From assembly GCA_016188175.1 (NCBI GenBank), contig JACPII010000107.1:1-34699 (forward strand): a stretch of 34,699 bases of DNA, read 5' to 3'. Source of the DNA: Candidatus Woesearchaeota archaeon (GTDB lineage: Archaea > Nanobdellota > Nanobdellia > Woesearchaeales > JACPBV01). The notes beneath the pieces are model-generated. The model was not told the DNA's origin and did not search any database. It saw only the letters and a program-made list of their open reading frames with translations. Positions 1 through 26,552 of this stretch are shown piece after piece (positions within the stretch are counted from its first letter, which is position 1; each line of letters begins with the position of its first letter). Made by a program: the position numbers and the translations under genes.

Positions 1-49
1 CCTTCCCTTAATCTTGTAGATTTCAATGTGCATGGGCATCACCGAAATT

Positions 50-237
50 AGTTAAGGGCTACTAATATATAAATCTATCGGTCATAAACTGGATAAAGTA
101 GCCAATAAATTATTTTATACTATTGTTAATTAGAAAGTGTAGTTAAGGGCTACTAATATATAAATCTATCTGTCATAAACTGGATAAAGTAGCCAATAAA
201 TTATTTTATACTATTGTTAATTAGAAAGTGTAGTTAA
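50..237. repeat. Tandem direct repeat: two 91-bp units (50-140, 141-231) plus the first 6 bp of a third
   Basis: Unit agttaagggctactaatatataaatctatc[g/t]gtcataaactgg...attagaaagtgt occurs twice with one mismatch (80 g / 171 t), followed by agttaa. Confidence 0.95.
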
Positions 238-2550: not shown

Positions 2551-2603
2551 TCTGGCCATCCACCTCCCCTTCCGATGGCAGCAATTCCGTTCCTTTCTTG
2601 CCG

Positions 2604-3102
2604 TATGTGCATAGCACCCTAAGGTCAAAATTCAATTTATAGGCAAAGACATTAATTATCGTAAGTGGATATCCTTGCCTATATTGGTGGACTTTAACAA
2701 GTATCATCAGATATTAAAGTCCGCGGCTATAATGATTATTATCGACGAGCGTTGCGGGGGACCGTCCTCCGTTGCGTAGCAACCGGAACGCTGGATTCTC
2801 CCTCCGTGCCGAGGCACCGGAACACTACTCTTACCCGTCCGGGAACCTCCGAAGCGGTAGCGAGGAAGTTCCAGAAATTCCGCTGAATTTCTCAGAACCT
2901 CCGAAGCGAAGCTGAGCGAGGTACCAGAAAATTCCGGGAATTTTCTCAGTACGCAGCTCCTTCTTAAGGCCAGTCGAGAATTTTGAAGCCTCCGAACGAA
3001 GTGAGGGGGTTCCAGAAATTACGCTGATTTCTCAGAGCCTCCGAACGAAGTGAGCGAGGCACAAGAAATTCCGATGAATTTCCCAGTGGTGCTATGCGCA
3101 TA
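2604..3102. repeat. Nested palindromic intergenic element: outer inverted arms 2604-2618 / 3088-3102 enclosing an array of alternating hairpins
   Basis: TATGTGCATAGCACC vs GGTGCTATGCGCATA (14/15 complementary); inside are repeated CTCCG/GAGCGAGG and CCAGAAA...TTTCTCAG hairpins. Confidence 0.8.
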
Positions 3103-3134
3103 CTTCTTGTCGCTAATTTTATAAACATAAGGTA

Positions 3135-7584: not shown

Positions 7585-7630
7585 TGTCTGCTGGACTTCA
7601 CGTCTCGCGTGGGGGATACTCCCGGGGGGA

Positions 7631-7736
7631 TGCCTCCAAACAGAGTTGGGAGGTTCCAGAAACCTCCGGGAATTTTCTCAGCACGCAGGGCCATCATGCC
7701 CATAGTCGGGCGTTTCGAATATGCTAAACAAATACC
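7631..7736 (+). repeat. Intergenic AB hairpin composite followed by copy 1 of a 63-bp repeat
   Basis: gcctccaaacagagttgggaggttccagaaacctccgggaattttctcag, then ...cacgcagggccatcatgcccatagtcgggcgtttcgaatatgctaaacaaatacc (7674-7736), matching 16596-16658 without gaps. Confidence 0.75.
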
Positions 7737-11674: not shown

Positions 11675-11790
11675 TGCAACCATTCCATCCGGTCTTCGAC
11701 CGTTGCCGAGGCGAACCCGAGCGCAACTAAGAAAATCCGCAGATTTTCTGTTGGTGGTTGGGGTCAGTAACTCCATCCGGAATGGTTGCA
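11675..11790. repeat. Nested palindromic element with 52-bp core module
   Basis: Outer TGCAACCATTCC (11675-11686)/GGAATGGTTGCA (11779-11790), perfect 12 bp; core 11702-11753 is 51/52 identical to 13954-14005. Confidence 0.85.
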
Positions 11791-11824
11791 TGCACGAAAA
11801 AATTCCATTGGAATTTCTGGTGCC

Positions 11825-11984
11825 CCAGAAATCCTTTGAGATTTCTCAGGGCTTAAAAATCCGACCGAGCGACCCAAGGGAGAATCCAGCGTTCCAGCCT
11901 GCGGACGGAGAGAATCCAGCGTTCCGGTTGCTTCGCAACGGAGAGCGAGCAATCCCCCCGTCTTGGACTGGGGGTGGTTGGATT
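11825..11984. repeat. Hairpin module CCAGAAATCC...ATTTCTCAG plus expanded AATCCGACC...GGTTGGATT element
   Basis: Arms as at 10297-10359, but the middle carries two gaatccagcgttcc[hairpin]ggaga units; inner CCCCCCGTC/GACtGGGGG. Confidence 0.8.
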
Positions 11985-16544: not shown

Positions 16545-16595
16545 CTCAAGGTAAAGGCACTTTATCGGGGTAAACATCTTCTCAGGTATATTCCC

Positions 16596-16658
16596 TTTCT
16601 CAGTTCGCAGGACTAGTATACCCGTCGTCGGGCGTTTCGAAGATGCTAAACAAATACC
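16596..16658 (+). repeat. Copy 2 of the 63-bp intergenic repeat
   Basis: tttctcagttcgcaggactagtatacccgtcgtcgggcgtttcgaagatgctaaacaaatacc; about 53/63 identical to 7674-7736, ungapped. Confidence 0.8.
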
Positions 16659-26408: not shown

Positions 26409-26552
26409 CTTCAAGGTCGCGGGGATTAAAGCTCCGCTCTTGAGAGCGACTTTGAAGTACTAAAAATGCGAACGTTAAAGCTTTGAAGTTGCGAAACAAC
26501 GAAAAGTACCAGAAACGCAAAGCGTTTCTCAGTACCCGCCCTTTAGGGCGGG
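26409..26552. repeat. Nested/tandem hairpin element in the sugar locus
   Basis: CTTCAAGGTCGC (26409-26420)/GCGACTTTGAAG (26446-26457), 11/12; GTACCAGAAACGCaaAGCGTTTCTCAGTAC (26506-26535); CCCGCCCtttaGGGCGGG (26535-26552). Confidence 0.8.

What the first reader, a model, noticed from the sequence alone, without database searches (positions are those of the whole stretch)
2820..3090. Alternating two-hairpin array (A-B-A-B...) downstream of thiL
Module A (aacctccgaagcggtagcgagg, aacctccgaagcgaagctgagcgaggt, agcctccgaacgaagtgaggggg, agcctccgaacgaagtgagcgaggc) alternates with module B (ccagaaattccgctgaatttctcag, ccagaaaattccgggaattttctcag, ccagaaattacgctgatttctcag, caagaaattccgatgaatttcccag). Stems covary: ACCTC/GAGGT vs GCCTC/GAGGC, and AGAAATTC/GAATTTCT vs AGAAAATTCC/GGAATTTTCT. 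This implies selection on, or templated copying of, structure.
Basis: seen in the sequence. Interest (0 to 1): 0.8.

Follow-up and report, generated by a model that had tools for sequence, protein, structure and literature searches.

The report
Modular hairpin jumping element in Woesearchaeota
The alternating hairpins after thiL are inner building blocks of one large copy of a small jumping DNA element that is scattered through many tiny archaea, and it is unusual because its folded middle is better conserved than its ends.

Summary
The A and B hairpins are real, but they are not one continuous array. They lie inside a 501-bp element (2603-3103) with 16-bp terminal inverted repeats and an 8-bp target-site duplication (TTCTTGCC/TTCTTGTC). 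It is the longest genuine member found of a non-autonomous DNA transposon (MITE) family. Of 155 related TIR pairs, 115 have flanks matching at 7-8 of 8 bases, against 0 of 614 control comparisons. The usual form is a bare ~132-135-bp hairpin "core". Larger copies add hairpin modules (A-B ~52 bp, C ~33 bp, a TA-flanked double hairpin). The same modules occur in two other MITE families with different ends. Each window AB unit matches the unit at the same position in elements elsewhere (94-96%) better than its neighbours (80-85%), so local tandem duplication is not the explanation. A model of the core finds it in 95 of 353 genomes (70 of 220 genera) of the order. Its pairing covaries strongly, and the folded interior is better conserved than the outer ends, the reverse of an ordinary MITE. 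Recent copies show no templated double changes, no G·U strand bias and no orientation bias to genes. I favour selection for the fold during DNA transposition over an RNA function. The transposase was not found. Closest analogues: pneumococcal BOX elements and REPINs.

The parts
2595..2602 (.). left target-site duplication TTCTTGCC
   Evidence: matches right copy 7/8; 8-bp duplication shown family-wide
2603..2618 (+). left terminal inverted repeat GTATGTGCATAGCACC
   Evidence: inverted repeat I1; conserved TIR
2619..2633 (+). core left arm CTAAGGTCAAAATTC: conserved unpaired NTNAGG plus stem TCAAAATTC
   Evidence: alignments A1 and A3
2638..2731 (+). nested double-hairpin element (2640-2729) flanked by TA duplications; found alone at other sites
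   Evidence: searches (I2, I3; L044, L045, L046, L051, L052), comparison with bare core
2743..2759 (+). core stem, 5' side (CGACGAGCGTTGCGGGG)
   Evidence: alignment A1; covariation
2768..2789 (+). hairpin module C1
2803..2823 (+). hairpin module C2
2834..2843 (+). apical hairpin of core, CCC-GTCC-GGG (conserved TNCGG)
2844..2865 (+). A1 (site I, proximal unit)
2871..2895 (+). B1 (site I, proximal unit)
2896..2922 (+). A2 (site I, distal unit)
2924..2949 (+). B2 (site I, distal unit; long-arm AGAAAATT class)
2950..2986 (+). core right arm separating the two A-B-A-B blocks
   Evidence: same sequence in bare cores
2987..3009 (+). A3 (site II, proximal unit)
3012..3035 (+). B3 (site II, proximal unit)
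3036..3060 (+). A4 (site II, distal unit)
3062..3086 (+). B4 (site II, distal unit; CAAGAAATT class)
3088..3103 (-). right terminal inverted repeat GTATGCGCATAGCACC
3104..3111 (.). right target-site duplication TTCTTGTC

Best explanation
Positions 2603-3103 are an insertion of a non-autonomous DNA transposon (MITE) of the archaeal order to which this genome belongs; named genomes with the element are Woesearchaeota/Nanoarchaeota MAGs. Shown here: terminal inverted repeats, 8-bp target-site duplications, many dispersed copies, intergenic insertion in either orientation, a bare ~130-bp core, and larger versions carrying shared hairpin modules at fixed internal positions. Also shown: strong covariation of the core over 30 genomes, and an interior better conserved than the outer ends. 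Inferred: a transposase acting in trans cuts and pastes the element; copies whose arms still pair and which keep the conserved internal hairpin move best, so pairing is renewed by compensatory changes in the active lineage while dead copies decay. Also inferred: hairpin modules are tolerated because they are self-contained and leave the ends together, and they are shuffled between elements by recombination. The A-B blocks of the finding are such modules, assembled in an ancestor and then moved here.
For: 8-bp flank identity >=7/8 in 115 of 155 TIR pairs, 0 of 614 controls. Bare and expanded forms with own TSDs. Modules in two unrelated TIR families with exact 8-9 bp TSDs. Window AB units closest to same-position units elsewhere, including another genome. 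0 of 124 elements inside ORFs and no orientation bias (36/33/23/20). Order-wide distribution: 95 of 353 genomes, 70 of 220 genera; only one hit outside the order in a phylum-wide sample of 371. Covariation above both controls. Interior identity 0.66-0.91 against outer TIR 0.56-0.62 and flanks 0.29-0.30. Recent copies: one-sided changes dominate, G-T about equal to A-C, paired sites change half as often as unpaired.
Against: No transposase or autonomous partner with these ends was found (PF12762, PF13610, PF01609, PF03050, PF00872, PF01610). The link between fold and transposition is inferred. The A3 sample was picked by a covariance model and so favours well-paired copies. The lower rate of change at paired sites partly reflects TIR constraint. 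The apical 3-bp stem shows more G-U (9) than A-C (1), which could hint at RNA. How modules enter a core is not shown.
Confidence: 0.62

Rival explanations
1. The core is a structured RNA (riboregulator or mobile ncRNA); covariation reflects selection on the transcript, and A/B/C hairpins are RNA expansion segments.
For: Strong covariation, conserved unpaired motifs (NTNAGG; G-rich loop; TNCGG apex) over 30 genomes; apical stem has 9 G-U versus 1 A-C.
Against: No Rfam match; no sense/antisense difference in energy or G-U count; G-T 39 versus A-C 32 in recent copies; no orientation bias to genes.
Confidence: 0.15
2. Templated copying: one arm of each hairpin is rewritten from the other by snap-back or template-switch synthesis, so complementarity is a by-product of mutation.
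For: Whole stems of C differ yet stay complementary; few mismatched intermediates across genomes.
Against: In near-identical copies one-sided changes outnumber complementary two-sided ones 133 to 9. Non-complementary chimeric C hairpins exist (GTTGCGAAGGGACA) and were not corrected.
Confidence: 0.1
3. The conserved interior is only the relic of a recent burst or of horizontal spread of one MITE; structure is a passive consequence of TIR-derived palindromy.
For: MITEs are typically palindromic and highly paired (PMC3049150); some copies within genomes are near-identical.
Against: Spacers have diverged to 0.40-0.41 identity while stems and loops stay at 0.66-0.91 and outer TIRs vary at 0.56-0.62; two-sided changes are four times shuffled expectation.
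Confidence: 0.12
4. The array arose at this locus by tandem duplication of an A-B unit.
For: Tandem Repeats Finder reports 2 copies of 52 bp at 2843-2949.
Against: Units are 80-85% identical to neighbours but 94-96% to same-position units of other elements, and the blocks are split by core sequence.
Confidence: 0.02

Closest known systems
BOX elements of Streptococcus pneumoniae and S. suis (PMC3049150)
   Same: Non-autonomous, dispersed, intergenic; conserved terminal parts with a variable number of internal modules that fold separately; in S. suis two families of ends share the same internal modules; size range similar (67-637 bp).
   Different: Here several module types with compensatory-variable stems, at two or more internal sites; clear 8-bp TSDs; order-wide in archaea; core conserved more than the outer ends. 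No sequence relation was tested.
REPINs (REP doublets moved by RAYT/Y1 transposases, PMC3116915)
   Same: Hairpin-forming miniature mobile DNA in which compensatory changes in the hairpin are common; hairpin proposed to matter for movement.
   Different: REPINs are proposed to be mobilised by a Y1 tyrosine transposase; an 8-bp TSD points to a DDE-type staggered cut here (general knowledge of transposition).
Ordinary MITEs derived from insertion sequences
   Same: TIRs, short TSD, no coding capacity, many copies.
   Different: In a usual MITE the TIR is the conserved part and the interior is free (general knowledge); here the folded interior is conserved across genera while outer ends change.
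Bacterial composite repeats (BIMEs, Correia elements)
   Same: Palindromic units in composite intergenic repeats (PMC3049150).
   Different: Alternation here is of different hairpins inside one TIR-bounded transposon rather than of one palindrome in two orientations.

Membership tests
MITE (non-autonomous DNA transposon) | Terminal inverted repeats | tested here: met
MITE (non-autonomous DNA transposon) | Target-site duplication | tested here: met
   115/155 at >=7 of 8 bases against 0/614 controls
MITE (non-autonomous DNA transposon) | Short, no coding capacity, many dispersed copies | tested here: met
   104-501 bp copies; 25 type-1 and 122 type-2 TIR sites in own genome
MITE (non-autonomous DNA transposon) | Autonomous IS with the same TIRs | tested here: inconclusive
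   six transposase families searched, none flanked by these ends; genomes incomplete
BOX elements | Variable number of internal modules between constant ends | tested here: met
   length ladder 132/165/199/231 and +52
BOX elements | Sequence homology to boxA/boxB/boxC | not tested
   BOX sequences were not fetched; membership not claimed
REPIN/RAYT | Y1 transposase (RAYT) in the genome, linked to repeats | not tested
   no Y1 family search made
REPIN/RAYT | No staggered-cut duplication expected (single-strand transposition; general knowledge) | tested here: not met
   clear 8-bp TSDs
Structured RNA family (Rfam) | Match to a known family | tested here: not met
   nothing above gathering scores
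Structured RNA | Excess of G-U over A-C in the transcribed orientation | tested here: not met
   39 versus 32; the apical stem alone leans the other way

The most novel reading that the evidence does not exclude
A mobile element whose identity lies in a folded interior rather than in its ends: an order-wide ~100-nt hairpin core, recognised as a structure, that has changed its terminal repeats (and so perhaps its transposase) repeatedly and grows by taking in further self-contained hairpins.
Probability: 0.3. Interest if true: 0.82.

Novelty: new variant of a known kind. Interest (0 to 1): 0.62.

Why it matters
It reveals an apparently undescribed family of hairpin transposons spread over about a quarter of the sampled genomes of one order of small-genome archaea, groups that are often thought to be lean. 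Interior conserved over exchangeable ends reverses the usual MITE pattern and makes a testable question: does a transposon need the fold of its middle? The shared modules give a natural record of how composite repeats such as BOX elements are assembled. It also warns that strong covariation, the usual sign of a functional RNA, can come from a DNA element.

Tried and rejected
Known RNA family: none. Local tandem duplication: rejected. Templated arm copying: not supported by recent copies. RNA-strand selection: no asymmetry. 3'-UTR or terminator role fixed to genes: no orientation bias. Transposase: IS1595, IS6, DDE_Tnp_1 (IS4/IS5), IS66, IS256 and ISL3 families searched in relatives with many copies; IS1595 and IS256 absent, the others few and without these TIRs. 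Autonomous copies by long TIR pairs with TSD in fetched loci: none longer than the window's 501 bp. Viral contigs: no exact match to the left end. Literature: no paper in the library holds Woesearchaeota, transposase and inverted repeats together.

Full report
WHAT IS THERE. The eight strings of the finding are in the sequence. The repeat finder showed that the whole stretch is bounded by a 16-bp inverted repeat, GTATGTGCATAGCACC at 2603-2618 and GGTGCTATGCGCATAC at 3088-3103. The flanks are TTCTTGCC and TTCTTGTC. So the object is a 501-bp element that fills most of the gap between thiL and the next ORF (2551-3134; the thiL call rests on the AIRS domains). The A/B hairpins form two separate A-B-A-B blocks, split by 37 bp of the element's own right arm (2950-2986).

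IT IS A TRANSPOSON. The window element matched 58 places in its own genome, mostly in pieces. The TIR occurs in pairs, most often 131-135 bp apart end to end, in its own and related genomes. From all fetched loci, 155 non-redundant TIR pairs were compared: 90 have perfect 8-bp flanking repeats and 25 have 7 of 8, whereas none of 614 displaced comparisons reached 7. Of 124 elements with good TSDs none lies inside an ORF of a simple ORF caller, and the four gene arrangements in the element's frame number 36, 33, 23 and 20.

MODULES. Lengths form a ladder: 132-135 (bare core), about 165, 199 and 231 (one to three C hairpins), and 184-189 (core plus one A-B), up to 501. A-B units sit at two fixed internal sites: after the apical CGGG (site I) and just before the right TIR (site II). 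The terminal unit of each site has its own signature, GTAC-CAGAAAATT...CTCA-GTAC at site I and GCAC-AAGAAATT...CTCA-GTG at site II. Window units are 80-85% identical to each other but 94-96% identical to same-position units in elements elsewhere (L047, L041, L008, L018), which excludes local tandem duplication. The modules also occur in elements with unrelated ends and exact 8-9 bp duplications: GGTCGCATTGAAAA (L045, L041, L038) and GAGGTTGGTGCGAA (L058, L061). A 90-bp double hairpin flanked by TA (2638-2731) is nested in the window copy and occurs alone elsewhere.

CORE CONSERVATION. A covariance model from 50 bare cores finds the core in 95 of 353 genomes and 70 of 220 genera of the order. 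In a phylum-wide draw of 371 genomes, 52 of 53 matches lie in the same order. A pattern scan of named genomes gave only Woesearchaeota, Nanoarchaeota or 'archaeon' MAGs. In 30 genomes (alignment A3) 98.3% of cells pair, 22 of 32 pairs show two-sided change, and the covariation score is 0.456 against 0.155 shuffled and at most 0.10 slid. Identity between genomes is 0.66-0.79 in internal stems and loops, 0.91 in the inner TIR, 0.56-0.62 in the outer TIR, 0.40-0.41 in spacers and about 0.30 in flanks. Outer ends differ between genomes yet stay inverted, and one genome (G044) holds several versions. A3 was picked by a structure model, so the percentage paired is biased upward.

SELECTION, TEMPLATING OR RNA. 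In clusters of near-identical copies, one-sided changes of stem pairs number 133 and two-sided complementary ones 9; G-T results 39 and A-C 32; paired sites change at 0.18 and unpaired at 0.36 events per site. Sense and antisense strands fold equally well with equal G-U counts. This argues against wholesale templating and against selection on one RNA strand, and fits slow compensation in an active lineage while individual copies decay. The apical stem, with 9 G-U and 1 A-C, is the only hint of the opposite.

MECHANISM. Shown: insertion with an 8-bp duplication, dispersal, modularity, covariation. Inferred: mobilisation in trans by a DDE-type transposase; need for the fold; module exchange by recombination. 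The C hairpin GTTGCGAAGGGACA looks like a left half of one class joined to the right half of another, which fits recombination. The transposase was not found in six families searched; the genomes are incomplete and fragmented, so absence is not strong evidence.

COMPARISON. Pneumococcal BOX elements are built alike (constant ends, variable inner modules; two end families share boxB in S. suis; PMC3049150). REPINs show compensatory hairpin changes (PMC3116915). Neither is claimed as a relative. The difference that matters is the order-wide conserved interior combined with exchangeable ends.

Noticed in passing
window 7600-7735 and 16577-16657: Truncated right ends of the second TIR type (GTATTTGTTTAGCATC), the first with an A-B remnant, next to other genes.
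   Followed up: partly
window 11740-11920 and 26509-26532: Further B-type hairpins (CCAGAAA...TTTCTCAG) with other outer stems; the first sits beside C-type hairpins in reverse orientation.
   Followed up: partly
window 49-237: Tandem repeat of a 91-bp AT-rich unit, 2.1 copies, 98% matching.
   Followed up: no
L050 2475-2777 and L046 3401-3692: TA-flanked double-hairpin elements with different arms but the same layout, nested several deep; they resemble palindrome-associated elements of IS200/IS605 type (from memory, untested).
   Followed up: partly
L062, L063, L056, L053, L064, L057: A/B/C modules in still other scaffolds for which no TIR with TSD was found, some next to runs of AAC/TTG repeats.
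   Followed up: partly
L160 5279-5622 and L177 1148-1597: Related genome (C21_metabat.bin.55) with the same ends but entirely different nested hairpins inside.
   Followed up: partly
L082 1603-1725, L083, L249, L250: A 123-bp element in another genome that shares the first 13 bases of the TIR but has an unrelated hairpin interior, also with TSDs.
   Followed up: no
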